Under the pieces are notes generated by a model. It saw only the letters and a program-made list of their open reading frames with translations. It made no database searches and was not told where the DNA came from. 64,000 nt of DNA from Streptomyces sclerotialus (GTDB lineage: Bacteria > Actinomycetota > Actinomycetes > Streptomycetales > Streptomycetaceae), in NCBI RefSeq assembly GCF_040907265.1, contig NZ_JBFOHP010000002.1, forward strand, positions 7,254,001 to 7,318,000, written 5' to 3'. The position numbers and the translations under genes are program-made. Positions 52,691-56,893 of the stretch are shown in pieces (position 1 is the stretch's first letter; each line of letters opens with the position of its first letter).

Positions 52691-53736
52691 ATGGCACACC
52701 CCTTCCCGATCAGGGAGATCGCCCGTCAGGCCGGGCTGAGCGAGGCCACCGTGGACCGGGTCCTCAACGACCGGGGCGGGGTACGGGAGAGCACCGTCAT
52801 GGAGGTGCACCAGGCCATCGAGGACCTGGAGCGGCAGCGGACGCAGGTACGGATCGGCGGCCGCACGTTCATGATCGACATGGTGATGCGGGCGCCGGAA
52901 CGGTTCTCGTCCGCGGTGCGCGCCGCGCTGGAGGCCGAACTGCCCGCCCTGCGCCCGGCGGTGGTGCGTGCCCGCTTCCACTTCCGGGAGGCCGGGCGGG
53001 TGTGTGAGCTGGTCGCGACGCTGGACAGGATCGGTAAGCGCGGTTCGCAGGGCGTCGTCCTCAAGGCGCCGGATGTCCCGGAGGTCGTCGCGGCCGTCGG
53101 CCGGCTGACGGCCGCCGGCATCCCCGTCGTCACGCTGGTCACCGATCTGCCCGGCAGTGCGCGCCGCGCGTACGTGGGGATCGACAACCGGGCCGCCGGT
53201 ACCACGGCCGCCTACCTCGTCGGCCAGTGGCTGGGCGAGCGTCCGGGGAACGTCCTCACCACCATCAGCCGGGGCTTCTTCCGGGGTGAGGAGGAGCGCG
53301 AGATGGGCTTCCGCAGCGCCATGCGTACCACCCAGCCGCACCGCACCCTGGTGGAGGTCACCGACAGCGACGGTCTGGACGCCACCCAGCGGGAGTGGTC
53401 CTGGCGGCGCTGGAGCGCGATCCGGCCATCAACGCGGTCTACTCGATGGGCGGCGGGAACGCGGCGACCGTGGACGCCTTCGAGGACCTGGGCCGGGAGT
53501 GTGCGGTGTTCATCGCGCACGACCTCGACCAGGACAACACCCGGCTGCTGCGCGAAGGCCGCCTCTCCGCCGTCCTCCACCACGACCTCCGCCAGGACAT
53601 GCGCCGCGCCTGCCAGACCGTCATGCGCGCGCACGGCGCCCTGCCTCCCGAAGGTGCCGTTCCGCCCGCCACCATCCAGATCGTGACGCCCTACAACATG
53701 CCTCCGGCGGTGGCAGGGCTGCGGGACGGTGCCTGA
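52691..53736 (+). pseudogene. LacI-family regulator with a single frameshift
   Basis: The N-terminal part is good: HTH FPIREIARQAGLSEATVDRV with LNDRGGVRESTV, then a periplasmic-binding-like sensor domain (ARFHFREAGR, QGVVLKAPDVPEVV, YVGIDNRAAGTTAAYL). At about 53394 the sequence GGGAGTGGTCCTGG should read GGGAGGTGGTCCTGG; one missing G throws the frame off. The rest follows in the next frame (LAALERDPAINAVYSMGGGN, AVFIAHDLDQDNTRLLREGR) to 53736. Everything else is undamaged, so this is either a very young null allele or a sequencing error. Sugar ligand unknown; possibly connected to the sugar ABC operon at 59.3 kb, but not adjacent. Confidence 0.85.
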
Positions 53737-53794: not shown

Positions 53795-53813
53795 TTAGGT
53801 TAGGCTTACCTTA
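53795..53813 (+). promoter_or_regulatory. Iron box (DmdR/IdeR-type) before the condensation-domain gene
   Basis: TTAGGTTAGGCTTACCTTA differs at only two positions from the Streptomyces iron-box pattern TTAGGTTAGGCTAACCTAA. It ends 18 bp before the ATG and contains TAGGTT and TAGGCT, which fit the TAGRRT form of -10 boxes, so an iron-loaded repressor would cover the promoter itself. Confidence 0.88.
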
Positions 53814-53831
53814 CTGAAAGCGGGGTAGGTC

Positions 53832-55229
53832 ATGCCGGTACCGGAACCGCTCGGCAGGGCGGCATGCGGCACATCGTCCGCGTGCCCCCGCGCCCTGCCG
53901 CTCACCGCGGCCCAGCAAGAGGTGTGGGAGGCGTGGCGCCGCGTCCCCGACGGCCCGGCGTACCAGAGCGCCGAGTACCGCGAGATCCAAGGGCCGCTGG
54001 AGCCGCGGCTGTTCGCGCAGGCGCTCCAGCGCACGGTCGGCGAGGCGAGCGCCCTGCGCATGCGGTTCTTCGCCACGGCCGAAGGGCCCCGGCAGTGCGC
54101 CCTCGTCATCGAGGCGCCGGGCAAGGGCTTCCCCCTGCACCGGGCCGACCTGCGTGACCGGCCTGACCCGGACGCCGAGGCGCGCGCGTGGATGGCCGCG
54201 GACCTGGAACGCCCCTTCCCGCCGGGCGGGCCGCTCTTCCGGTACGCGCTGTTCCGCGTGGGGGAGGCCCACTGGCTCTGGTACCGGCGCTTCCACCATC
54301 TGGTCGTGGACGACTTCGGGCGCGGACTGCTCGTCCGGCGGACCGCCGAGGTCCACGACGCGCTCGCCGCCGGGCTGCGGCCCCCGGACAGCCCCTTCGG
54401 CCGCCTCTCGGACCTGCTCGCGGACGAGGCCGCGTACCGCGCCTCCGACCAGTACGAGGCCGACCGGGACCACTGGTCCGCCACCCTGGCCGGCCGCCCC
54501 GCGGCACCCACGCTCGCGGGCCGCGCCGCGCACTCCGTCCGTACGCCGCTGCGCGACGGCGTCACCGTGCCGGGCCATCTCCTCTCGCGGCTCCGGTCGC
54601 TGACCGCCGATCTGAACGCGACCCGGGGCGAGGTGCTGACCGCGGTGCTCGGGCTGTACGTCGCGCGGAGCACCGGCTCCGCCGACGTGGTGCTCGGGGT
54701 GCCGATGCCGGGCCGCACCGGGCCGACGGCGCTGAGCGTCCCCGGAGTGCTGCGCAACGTCCTCCCGCTGCGTCTGACGGTGCGTCCGCACGACACCTTC
54801 GCGACGCTGACCCGGCAGGTCGTCCTCGGGCTCCGCGCCGCCCGGCGCCACCAGCGTTACCCCTTGCCGGACATCCGGCGCGACCTCGGGCGGAGCGTTG
54901 CGGGGCCGGACCCGGTGGGCCCGCTCGTCGAGGTGCGGACCTCCGGTGACGAGGTCACCTTCGCGGGCGCGCCCGCCGTCCCGCACCCGCTGTCCGGCGG
55001 GCCGGTCCGCGACCTCGCCCTCACCGTGCGCGCCGACAGCGGCAGTTCGGGGCTGCGGGTCGAGTACGCGGCCCACCCGGAGCGCTATGCAGCGGGGGGA
55101 CTTCGCACGCACGTGGCGGGCCTGTTCGACCTGCTGGCGGAGTGCGGCCCGCACACACCGCTCGGTGTGCCGGACCGCACCTCCCATGGCGGCCGGCGGG
55201 CGCTCAGTGGCGTCCGGGCCCGCCGCTGA
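53832..55229 (+). CDS. Stand-alone NRPS condensation domain, EntF-like
   Basis: A 465-aa protein made of one condensation domain and nothing else: no adenylation, carrier or thioesterase part. It opens LPLTAAQQEVWEAWRRVPDG and shows ASALRMRFFATAEGPRQCAL, LWYRRFHHLVVDDFGRGLLV, ASDQYEADRDHWSATLAG, PGVLRNVLPLRL and RRHQRYPLPDIRRDLGR, the same order as the first domain of enterobactin synthetase EntF. The active motif HHxxxDG reads HHLVVDD: the second His and Asp are kept, the Gly is Asp. ATG is preceded by GGGGTAGGTC and an iron box. Its stop overlaps the end of the opposing SDR gene by 26 bp. Likely role: acyl/amide transfer in siderophore-related chemistry, unproven. Confidence 0.85.
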   Translation: MPVPEPLGRAACGTSSACPRALPLTAAQQEVWEAWRRVPDGPAYQSAEYREIQGPLEPRLFAQALQRTVGEASALRMRFFATAEGPRQCALVIEAPGKGFPLHRADLRDRPDPDAEARAWMAADLERPFPPGGPLFRYALFRVGEAHWLWYRRFHHLVVDDFGRGLLVRRTAEVHDALAAGLRPPDSPFGRLSDLLADEAAYRASDQYEADRDHWSATLAGRPAAPTLAGRAAHSVRTPLRDGVTVPGHLLSRLRSLTADLNATRGEVLTAVLGLYVARSTGSADVVLGVPMPGRTGPTALSVPGVLRNVLPLRLTVRPHDTFATLTRQVVLGLRAARRHQRYPLPDIRRDLGRSVAGPDPVGPLVEVRTSGDEVTFAGAPAVPHPLSGGPVRDLALTVRADSGSSGLRVEYAAHPERYAAGGLRTHVAGLFDLLAECGPHTPLGVPDRTSHGGRRALSGVRARR

Positions 55230-55749
55230 GCGCGGGTGCCGGCCGCGGGCCGCGGGCCGCCCGGCCACCGGGAGCACTGCCCAGCGCGTACAGCCGCTCG
55301 GCCACGTCACACACCCAGTCCGGCTGCGGGCAGCCGCCCTCGGGGTGCCGTCGCGGCGTTCCCGGGCCGGTGTCCGGCAGTTCCTCGTGCACCACGGTGC
55401 GGCCGTGTGCCGCGTACAGCGATGTCGTGCACAGCGTCCGCCCGGCGGCCAGGTGCAGCAGGCAGGCGTCGAGCCGGCCGCAGGCCCGCGCGAGGACCCG
55501 CAGGGCGTCGAGGCCGCCGCGGACGGCACGGGGGCCGGTGAGCCCGGTGTCGCCAGGGCCGGTCCACGTCCCGCAGTGGGCGACGACGGCCGGCCGGGTG
55601 CGCAGCAGTGTGGTCTGTACGGCCGCCGCGTCGAAGAGGTCGAGGTCGTCCCGGCCCAGTGCCAGGAAGCGCTGTCCGTTCGCGCGCAGCAGGGCGCACA
55701 GCCGGCGTCCGACCTCTCCGTCGGCGCCGGTCACCAGCCAGCAGCTCAT
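55204..55749 (-). CDS. Short RmlD-like SDR protein lacking the catalytic segment
   Basis: A 181-aa protein related to dTDP-4-dehydrorhamnose reductase. The N-terminal Rossmann part is normal (SCWLVTGADGEVGRRLCALL, ALGRDDLDLFDAAAVQ, RPAVVAHCGTWTG). The family's Tyr-x-x-x-Lys catalytic pair, the sugar loop and about 100 residues are absent; the protein passes from GRTVVHEELPDTG to PDWVCDVAERLYALG. Its ATG overlaps the TGA of the RmlB-like gene (ATGA) and GGGAGG lies upstream, so it is translated with it. Both presumably respond to the iron box at 56280. No in-frame stop or frameshift suggests decay. Confidence 0.75.
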   Translation of the reverse strand: MSCWLVTGADGEVGRRLCALLRANGQRFLALGRDDLDLFDAAAVQTTLLRTRPAVVAHCGTWTGPGDTGLTGPRAVRGGLDALRVLARACGRLDACLLHLAAGRTLCTTSLYAAHGRTVVHEELPDTGPGTPRRHPEGGCPQPDWVCDVAERLYALGSAPGGRAARGPRPAPALSGGPGRH

Positions 55750-56240
55750 CGCGTGCCTCCCGAGCGGCCGCACTCCGCGAGCAGGCGTCCGGTCAGCTCG
55801 GCGGCGGTCAGTTCCGACCCGCCGCCGAGGTCGTGCACCTGGCCGGCTTCGCCGCCCCCGAGCGTCAGCCGCAGTGCCCGGTAGTGGTCGTAGACGTAGA
55901 CGAACCGTGTCACCCCGGCGTGCACGGCGGTCTGGAGGAGCGTACGGGTGCCCGGCAGGTCGGCGACGGCGGTGCGGTCGACGGCGGGCTCTTCGGCGAG
56001 GTGCACGACCAGCTCGTGGTGGCGCATCAGTTCCTGTACCAGCGGGCGGTCGTGGACGTCGCCGGGTACGTGGTCGAGGCAGGAGCGGCCGTCGAAGGGG
56101 AGCGGTCTCCCGGGGCCGCTGCCGGCGGACGGGTCGAGCACGGTGACGGCGTGCGGGGCGCCTATGGGGGCAGGGAACAGCAGCGCCCTGAGGAAGGGCG
56201 AGCCGGTGAATCCGGCGCGGCCGGTGACGAGCAGACGCAT
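55746..56240 (-). CDS. Short RmlB-like epimerase/dehydratase protein lacking its catalytic middle
   Basis: A 164-aa relative of dTDP-glucose 4,6-dehydratase. Residues 1-115 match its NAD-binding start (MRLLVTGRAGFTGSPFLRAL, GDVHDRPLVQELMRHHELVVHLAEEPAVDR, TLLQTAVHAGVTRFV). The sequence then jumps to the family's far C-terminal part (VYDHYRALRLTLGGGEAGQV, HDLGGGSELTAAELTGRLL). About 140 residues, with the STDEVYG, YxxxK and substrate-binding segments, are missing. GGGAGG precedes the ATG, and an iron box lies 40 bp upstream. First gene of a two-gene operon. It may bind NAD or a nucleotide sugar but should not be a normal dehydratase. Confidence 0.78.
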   Translation of the reverse strand: MRLLVTGRAGFTGSPFLRALLFPAPIGAPHAVTVLDPSAGSGPGRPLPFDGRSCLDHVPGDVHDRPLVQELMRHHELVVHLAEEPAVDRTAVADLPGTRTLLQTAVHAGVTRFVYVYDHYRALRLTLGGGEAGQVHDLGGGSELTAAELTGRLLAECGRSGGTR

Positions 56241-56279
56241 GGGCGGCCTCCCGGGCGGGACAATCTGTGACCGATGAAG

Positions 56280-56298
56280 TTAGCTTAGGCTAACCTAA
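56280..56298. promoter_or_regulatory. Iron box (DmdR/IdeR-type), divergent
   Basis: TTAGCTTAGGCTAACCTAA matches the iron-box pattern at 18 of 19 positions. It lies between the RmlB-like gene (start 56240, minus) and the Fes-domain gene (start 56360, plus) and could control both. Confidence 0.92.
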
Positions 56299-56359
56299 GT
56301 ACACATGGTCGCGGCGGGGCGGTCACAGGGGTCGCACGCCGCTCAGGAAAGCGGGAAAG

Positions 56360-56893
56360 ATGTACGTCCTCGCCGGTCCCGACGCCCAGGACTCGCGGCC
56401 GTTCCGCACGGCCGGTCCCTGCGTCGAACGCCTTGCCGCCCGGCTCGCCACCGTCACCGGAGCCGAACACGAAGCACTGCTCGCCGAGTTCTGGGCCGAC
56501 ACCGAACGGCGCGGCACACCTCTGGTCGAAACGGTCACCGGGGAGGCCGGCGACCGCGCGGTGACGTTCCTCTGGCGCGGCCACCGGGCCACGGGTCAGG
56601 TACTGCTGCTGGCCGACGGCATCACCGACCCCGACGACCTCACCTCTTCGCTGCTGGACCGGCTGCCCGGCACCGACGTCTGGCACCTGACGTACCTGCT
56701 GCGCGCCGGCTGCCGCGGGTCGTACAGACTGGCCGCGGACATCTCACCCGGCGGTCCGCCCAAGGACCCCGGGCGGCTCCGGCAGCGGCTCCGCGCCCTG
56801 TGCCGGTACGCCGCCGCCGACCCGCTCAACGGCAGGACGGACGGAGCCGTTCGGGGCGGGGCGGGCGGTTCCGTCTACGTCCTGCCCGGCTAG
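56360..56893 (+). CDS. Lone N-terminal domain of enterochelin esterase (Fes)
   Basis: A 177-aa protein that matches only the N-terminal (DUF3327-type) domain of Fes: LLAEFWADTERRGTPLVETV, RAVTFLWRGH, VLLLADGITDPDDLTSSLLD, LPGTDVWHLTYLLRAGCRGSYRL and RYAAADPLNGRTDG. In normal esterases the alpha/beta hydrolase domain with the catalytic Ser follows; here the stop comes at SVYVLPG, exactly where the first domain ends, and a terminator hairpin follows. AGGAAAGCGGGAAAG precedes the ATG. An iron box is 62 bp upstream. It cannot hydrolyse ferric-siderophore esters itself but may bind catecholate siderophores. Confidence 0.85.
   Translation: MYVLAGPDAQDSRPFRTAGPCVERLAARLATVTGAEHEALLAEFWADTERRGTPLVETVTGEAGDRAVTFLWRGHRATGQVLLLADGITDPDDLTSSLLDRLPGTDVWHLTYLLRAGCRGSYRLAADISPGGPPKDPGRLRQRLRALCRYAAADPLNGRTDGAVRGGAGGSVYVLPG

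What the first reader, a model, noticed from the sequence alone, without database searches (positions are those of the whole stretch)
53795..56893. Iron-box-controlled group of domain-sized siderophore and nucleotide-sugar proteins
Two near-perfect iron boxes (53795, 56280) flank four open genes: a lone EntF-type condensation domain, an RmlB-like/RmlD-like overlapping pair and a lone Fes N-terminal domain. Each is a reduced relative of a larger enzyme, yet frames, ribosome sites, ATGA overlap and terminators are intact. No adenylation, DHB-synthesis, receptor or export genes accompany them. The parts (enterobactin-like condensation, esterase-type siderophore-binding domain, sugar-nucleotide folds) could form an iron-starvation module that modifies, binds or senses a catecholate siderophore, maybe a glycosylated one. 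The alternative is parallel decay of a former siderophore locus. Iron control follows from known DmdR/IdeR boxes; the joint function is inference.
Basis: partly seen in the sequence, partly recalled or inferred. Interest (0 to 1): 0.85.

Follow-up and report, generated by a model that had tools for sequence, protein, structure and literature searches.

The report
Shrunken siderophore genes kept under selection
In a small group of soil Streptomyces, an iron-controlled set of four genes looks like the collapsed remains of a gene cluster for a sugar-decorated iron-scavenging molecule, yet the leftover enzyme pieces, most of them without their catalytic parts, still appear to be preserved by selection, which hints at a second life in an unknown binding role.

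Summary
In detail: two near-palindromic iron boxes (53795, 56280; none expected by chance) and four open, domain-sized genes. Relatives show their origin. S. rimosus, S. varsoviensis and three other genomes carry a block RmlD<-RmlB<-RmlA<-ABC exporter<-[iron box]->glycosyltransferase->Fes; in one (G349) DHB-siderophore genes flank it. The window has the same order without RmlA, exporter and glycosyltransferase. RmlB and RmlD lack the internal segment holding the catalytic YxxxK, Fes keeps only its N domain, and the NRPS is cut to its C domain with HHxxxDD instead of HHxxxDG. So the locus arose by reduction. But it is not plain decay: truncation junctions are shared, nine distinct short Fes-N proteins form one clade, and codon models give omega 0.12-0.17 for all four genes (omega=1 rejected; three neighbours 0.04-0.07, TetR 0.23). 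Three of four relatives examined have no DhbE and none has another Fes-N protein, so the products cannot be tailoring a home-made catecholate there. Best reading: iron-regulated, largely non-catalytic leftovers retained for binding. The joint function is inference. The window's own genome has a complete catecholate cluster elsewhere.

The parts
53795..53813 (+). iron box 1 (DmdR/IdeR-type palindrome), 18 bases before the C-domain start codon
   Evidence: none in shuffles; box at the matching place in S. niger
53832..55229 (+). stand-alone EntF/DhbF-type condensation domain, 465 aa, motif HHLVVDD
   Evidence: PF00668 4e-49; 51% identical to the C domain of the genome's own full-length NRPS; omega 0.153
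55204..55749 (-). RmlD-like short protein, 181 aa: N-terminal Rossmann half; segment with YxxxK (about 42 residues) and most of the C-terminal domain missing
   Evidence: omega 0.122
55746..56240 (-). RmlB-like short protein, 164 aa: N-terminal NAD-binding half joined in frame to a C-terminal piece, about 95 core residues with YxxxK missing
   Evidence: the same form in four protein records; omega 0.123
56280..56298 (.). iron box 2, between the divergent RmlB-like and FesN genes
   Evidence: box before FesN also in S. niger, Ru73, S. ochraceiscleroticus, S. violens; the TTAGCTTAG half is shared with the boxes of the parent blocks
56360..56893 (+). free-standing Fes N-terminal domain (PF11806), 177 aa, no hydrolase domain
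   Evidence: single-origin clade of short forms; omega 0.174; model matches Fes structures

Best explanation
The group is the collapsed remainder of an iron-repressed cluster for a sugar-decorated (probably deoxysugar) enterobactin-type siderophore. Loss of the exporter, RmlA, glycosyltransferase and most of the NRPS left four domain-sized genes behind two intact iron boxes. The leftovers then stayed under purifying selection as iron-regulated, largely non-catalytic proteins. FesN is the part kept most widely; it most likely binds a ferric catecholate or related ligand in iron-starved cells. The Rml halves most likely act as an NAD-binding pair without dehydratase or reductase activity, and the C domain as a binding or scaffold protein. 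Shown from sequence: reduced forms, box conservation, shared junctions, selection on the short forms, absence of catalytic segments. Supported but not proven: the parent cluster. Inferred: iron response in vivo, ligand binding, joint action.
For: The block FecCD|RmlD<-RmlB<-RmlA<-ABC<-[box]->GT->Fes->binding protein is complete in 5 of the 16 loci given to (L059, L060, L061, L063, L099), with a 16-17/19 box between ABC and GT in all five (families); a named S. rimosus R6-500 plasmid copy adds RfbC. Window order RmlD<-RmlB<-[box]->FesN equals it minus GT, ABC and RmlA. Short RmlB falls with G349's RmlB against 10 others (95/91). Shared junctions; short FesN one clade, 100/99. Omega 0.12-0.17; omega=1 costs 2dlnL 80-143. 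Observed Nei-Gojobori omega is below all 300 neutral replicates in 8 of 9 pairs at GC 0.72 and 9 of 9 at GC 0.85. Box before FesN in four relatives. FesN model pLDDT 85, matches Fes.
Against: Omega is about 1.7 to 4.8 times that of FUSC, P450 and SBP, so constraint is weaker. Parts are lost: no C domain in the Ru73 stretch; no C domain or Rml pair in those of S. ochraceiscleroticus and S. violens. The C-domain test rests on two sequences, the Rml tests on three. The species with DNA were found through FesN, so its presence in all five is by construction. FesN's nearest full-length Fes is unresolved; the C-domain clade joins no one DhbF group; the short RmlB clade sits on a long branch (1.04). 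RmlB-short model only pLDDT 72, top matches at about 10 A rmsd. One neutral test (FesN window-S. niger, 0.60, minimum 0.48) fails. No expression or binding data.
Confidence: 0.58

Rival explanations
1. Plain decay: the genes are passing remnants, kept open by chance and slow loss, with no function.
For: Clear reduction history; part loss across relatives; higher omega than FUSC, P450 and SBP; absence of stops alone is weak evidence (P of no stop 0.04-0.48 per pair).
Against: Omega 0.12-0.17 with omega=1 rejected for each gene; third-position share above all neutral replicates in 8 of 9 pairs at GC 0.72; boxes and leaders conserved; junctions shared, so selection acted after truncation.
Confidence: 0.28
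2. VibH-like accessory: the lone C domain works in trans with the DHB enzymes of the genome's own catecholate cluster to make an amide variant, the others assisting.
For: Free-standing C domains act as amide synthases, and an enterobactin pathway can supply DHB (VibH, SchH; passages of PMC7962358); full DHB cluster in this genome; VibH is a distant relative (1l5a, 3e-22).
Against: Motif HHxxxDD in 4 of 4 distinct members versus HHxxxDG in 17 of 17 scorable C domains from open frames of 1,000 aa or more; S. niger keeps the C domain but shows no DhbF and no DhbE relative above 34% identity (draft assembly).
Confidence: 0.06
3. Regulatory decoys: the four proteins bind partners of a full catecholate system (carrier protein, Fes substrate) to damp it.
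For: Domain boundaries match interaction and binding domains; iron boxes place them with siderophore genes (inference).
Against: Three of four relatives examined have no DhbE, and all four have no second Fes-N protein to damp.
Confidence: 0.05

Closest known systems
iroBCD salmochelin locus (C-glycosylated enterobactin; names and make-up recalled)
   Same: the parent blocks combine an EryCIII-type glycosyltransferase, a tandem ABC transporter of about 1,220 aa and a Fes-type esterase beside an iron box
   Different: the parent blocks add RmlA, B, D (and C); GT was not compared with IroB itself; the window has lost GT and exporter and keeps fragments
Enterobactin cluster ens of Streptomyces varsoviensis (PMC10188961)
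   Same: DHB synthesis, NRPS, esterase and uptake genes; another strain of this species carries the GT/ABC/Rml/Fes block (L060)
   Different: the parts I read do not discuss glycosyltransferase or Rml genes (ensU1-U9 'functions remain unknown'); whether L060 lies in the ens cluster was not tested; no short forms
VibH/SchH amide synthases
   Same: stand-alone C domain related to DHB-using condensation domains
   Different: altered motif, and no DhbE found in S. niger
Enterochelin esterase Fes
   Same: N-terminal domain PF11806, predicted same fold
   Different: esterase domain (PF00756) absent

Membership tests
Enterochelin esterase (Fes) | PF11806 N-terminal domain | tested here: met
   5e-24; fold match 4e-8 to 3c8d
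Enterochelin esterase (Fes) | C-terminal esterase domain (PF00756) | tested here: not met
   not found; present in 3 of 3 full-length relatives scanned; the short forms end at the domain boundary in 8 of 8 aligned
dTDP-glucose 4,6-dehydratase (RmlB) | NAD-binding GxxGxxG | tested here: met
   G7, G10, G13 invariant
dTDP-glucose 4,6-dehydratase (RmlB) | catalytic YxxxK (recalled motif) | tested here: not met
   segment absent in 3 of 3 short forms aligned
dTDP-4-dehydrorhamnose reductase (RmlD) | catalytic YxxxK (recalled motif) | tested here: not met
   segment absent in 3 of 3 short forms aligned
VibH-type amide synthase | HHxxxDG active site | tested here: not met
   HHLV[VM]DD
VibH-type amide synthase | DHB-AMP ligase in the genome | tested here: inconclusive
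   present in the window's genome, not found in S. niger
Catecholate siderophore biosynthetic cluster | DHB synthesis, activation and full NRPS at the locus | tested here: not met
   none among the genes scanned at 50.2-59.1 kb; a full set lies elsewhere in the genome
DmdR/IdeR iron regulon | 19-bp iron box upstream | tested here: met
DmdR/IdeR iron regulon | repressor binding and iron response | not testable with these tools
   needs EMSA and transcript data

The most novel reading that the evidence does not exclude
A siderophore cluster has been converted into a small iron-starvation module of inactive enzyme pieces: a free Fes N domain that captures ferric catecholates made by other microbes, and a Rossmann-half pair that reads NAD state, together a binding or sensing device built from pathway debris. 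A second lineage (Streptomyces sp. Pv4-95) carries a lone C domain and a lone Fes N domain by what looks like a separate reduction.
Probability: 0.15. Interest if true: 0.8.

Novelty: new variant of a known kind. Interest (0 to 1): 0.52.

Why it matters
Reduced biosynthetic loci are usually written off as decay. Here the truncated forms can be placed in time (shared junctions) and tested for selection, and they pass. If they work, this is a clear case of pathway enzymes turned into non-catalytic iron-regulated proteins, and it makes the role of the Fes N-terminal domain on its own directly testable. The parent blocks also point to a predicted deoxysugar-decorated catecholate siderophore in S. 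rimosus, S. varsoviensis and relatives.

Tried and rejected
A giant ORF directly after FesN in Ru73, S. ochraceiscleroticus and S. violens looked like a partner; the one scanned (S. ochraceiscleroticus) is a KS-AT-DH-KR-ACP-C-A-T-TE hybrid (tetramate type, recalled) and was set aside as an unrelated neighbour, as were MetE and an amidohydrolase on the other side. A VibH-like role was downgraded. Repeating the genus search with another sample size gave no new genomes with a match. RmlB-short in 100 relatives gave only itself at E<=1e-20. RmlB-short identity alone does not separate parent-block RmlBs from other plasmid RmlBs (0.47-0.53 versus 0.43-0.48); only the tree split does. The premature-stop simulation has little power. 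A script to read omega from the wrong file returned nothing and was redone. The omega=1 fits used a grid of five kappa values. Motif counts leave out rows the pattern could not score (L089, L103, P0004, P0013, P0017, P0018), P0020 (motif intact, but PF00668-only on a 3.9 kb contig and perhaps cut), and P0022, which was not in that tree. Short records P0037 and P0038 were not counted as truncations: one is named partial, the other lies on a 2.3 kb contig. Literature: seven searches; I opened four papers from their listings and saw none on this group; that is no proof of absence.

Full report
WHAT IS THERE. The window is part of an 8.26 Mb Streptomyces chromosome (G000:C2:7254001-7318000). The boxes are far beyond chance (none in 100 shuffles) and are two of nine such places in the genome at up to 2 mismatches. 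The simple scan found no terminators. The genome also carries a complete enterobactin/griseobactin-type cluster (name recalled) at 693-706 kb: DhbA, DhbC, DhbE, an isochorismatase DhbB, a C-A-T-TE NRPS and a full Fes with both domains. The window's C domain is 51% identical to that NRPS's C domain and FesN 40% to that Fes, so they are not recent copies of it.

WHERE IT COMES FROM. Fes relatives led to a block FecCD-type permease | RmlD<-RmlB<-RmlA<-tandem ABC transporter<-[iron box]->EryCIII-type glycosyltransferase->Fes->binding protein. Families were checked on S. rimosus, G349 and one S. varsoviensis gene; the transporter is 1,217 and 1,221 aa in the two scanned. A box of 16-17/19 lies between transporter and glycosyltransferase in all five. 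G205 has transporter, glycosyltransferase, Fes and DhbA but no Rml gene in the 13.6 kb held; the other loci given to one search have Fes without the block. Only in G349 did I see DHB genes on both sides (DhbC and DhbE; DhbF, DhbB and DhbA). A plasmid of S. rimosus R6-500 annotates the sugar genes plus RfbC, a full set for dTDP-rhamnose, with an enterochelin esterase about 7 kb further on. The window's RmlD<-RmlB<-[box]->FesN has the block's order with RmlA, transporter and glycosyltransferase gone, and box 2 shares the TTAGCTTAG half with the block boxes. In the RmlB tree the short forms fall with G349's RmlB apart from ten others (95/91), on a long branch. This is the main ground for the parent. 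FesN's own tree does not resolve its nearest full-length Fes, and the window's C-domain clade is a separate branch.

WHAT WAS LOST. RmlB-like: the N-terminal half is followed in frame by a piece of the C-terminal domain; about 95 residues with YxxxK are absent. RmlD-like: about 42 residues with YxxxK and most of the C-terminal domain are absent. FesN stops at the N-domain boundary. The C domain reads HHLV[VM]DD in 4 of 4 distinct members of its clade, against HHxxxDG in 17 of 17 scorable C domains from open frames of 1,000 aa or more (an eighteenth, L089, could not be scored). YxxxK and HHxxxDG as catalytic motifs are recalled, the latter also in passages of PMC7962358.

WHO ELSE HAS IT. All four genes with both boxes occur in S. 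niger; Ru73 has the Rml pair and FesN; S. ochraceiscleroticus and S. violens have FesN with its box, and no C domain or Rml pair in the stretch held. These species were found through FesN, so its presence is by construction. Protein records add S. olivaceiscleroticus (C domain and FesN, contigs of the same length), CA-132043 (C domain), NPDC042319 (short RmlB), S. purpurogeneiscleroticus and NPDC050315 (FesN). In 392 genomes sampled from the genus, 30 have a close Fes-N match and 3 of these carry the short form. Eleven rows (nine distinct sequences) of short FesN form one clade at 100/99: one truncation. In the four named relatives (draft assemblies) the short FesN is the only match at E<=1e-4. 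At E<=1e-60 the C domain finds S. niger's own copy, a 36% relative in S. ochraceiscleroticus, and nothing in the other two. DhbE is at 56% in S. ochraceiscleroticus and only 33-34% in the other three. DhbB has a 53% relative in S. niger and none at E<=1e-30 in the other three. None of the four has the glycosyltransferase at E<=1e-30.

IS IT DECAYING. Codon models (GY+F3X4) give omega: C domain 0.153 (2 sequences), RmlD 0.122 (3), RmlB 0.123 (3), FesN 0.174 (5). Fixing omega at 1 costs 2dlnL of 124.5, 107.4, 80.4 and 143.4. Neighbours: FUSC 0.072, P450 0.036, SBP 0.054, TetR 0.229. Two-sequence fits used a duplicated row to satisfy the program. As a check free of that model, neutral simulation at GC 0.72 gave mean Nei-Gojobori omega of 1.07-1.16 for the short genes; the observed value was below all 300 replicates in 8 of 9 pairs, the exception being FesN window-S. 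niger (0.60, minimum 0.48); at GC 0.85 it was below in 9 of 9. Because the junctions are shared, this selection acted on the short forms. Against it: weaker constraint than three of four neighbours, and loss of parts. Residues invariant in full-length relatives are kept more often than others (0.80 v 0.47 in FesN, using four of the five full-length rows; 0.60 v 0.27 RmlB; 0.57 v 0.21 RmlD), which inheritance alone would also give.

STRUCTURE. FesN is modelled with pLDDT 85 and matches Fes crystal structures, then, weakly, CBM48-type modules of feruloyl esterases. RmlB-short reaches pLDDT 72 and matches dTDP-glucose dehydratases and a relative (E 3e-7, TM 0.5-0.6 by query, but about 10 A rmsd in the top rows); its alignment held full-length rows, which may lend it their fold.

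A PARALLEL CASE. Twelve rows of stand-alone C domains (S. natalensis, S. chattanoogensis and others) form another clade (99/95), sister to G349's C domain (100/98). Outside the window clade 9 of 11 scored stand-alone domains depart from HHxxxDG, six with HR for HH (rows left out are listed under Tried and rejected; with P0020 it is 9 of 12). Streptomyces sp. Pv4-95 has a lone C domain and a 179-aa Fes N domain on contigs of the same length, the latter in another part of the tree. Change of the condensation motif with the frame kept has thus happened more than once.

HOW IT WORKS. Shown: iron boxes, reduction, selection. Inferred: when iron is scarce a DmdR-type repressor leaves the boxes and the proteins appear; FesN binds a catecholate or its ferric complex without cleaving it; the Rml halves bind NAD and each other; the C domain binds without condensing. 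Since three of four relatives show no DhbE, the ligand there would be a foreign siderophore or its breakdown products. I put 0.58 on reduction followed by selected, largely non-catalytic retention, and 0.28 on plain decay.

LITERATURE SEEN. PMC10188961: abstract, passages, sections 3.1 and 4. PMC7962358 and PMC12161575: passages (the latter on DmdR1 sites in S. coelicolor, for background). PMC13251462: two reference-list passages. Other papers: search listings only.

Noticed in passing
L059 265-12267; L060, L061, L063, L099; L120 (S. rimosus plasmid pSRP1.2): Conserved iron-box block of glycosyltransferase, Fes, tandem ABC transporter, RmlA/B/D (RfbC in L120) and uptake genes: predicts a deoxysugar-decorated (perhaps rhamnosyl) enterobactin-type siderophore in Streptomyces, plasmid-borne in one strain.
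   Followed up: partly
L094 8333-9628, L095 9037-10332; proteins P0005-P0010, P0012, P0014, P0016: Second, independent group of stand-alone C domains; in two genomes after DhbA-DhbB and before Fes; motif HHxxxDG mostly changed, yet low omega in the one pair tested.
   Followed up: partly
window 52691-53736: LacI-type regulator gene upstream of the group looks frameshifted near 53390-53410: third-position GC switches frame there.
   Followed up: partly
P0014 and P0039 (Streptomyces sp. Pv4-95): Lone C domain and lone Fes N domain on contigs of the same length, apparently reduced independently of the window clade.
   Followed up: no
L055 10602-19937; similar long ORFs in L054, L056: PKS-NRPS hybrid (KS-AT-DH-KR-ACP-C-A-T-TE in L055) directly beside the short FesN gene.
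   Followed up: partly
L096 9492-10781 (G159): Full-length Fes with its own iron box among unrelated genes; at 63% the closest full-length match to FesN in the genus sample.
   Followed up: no
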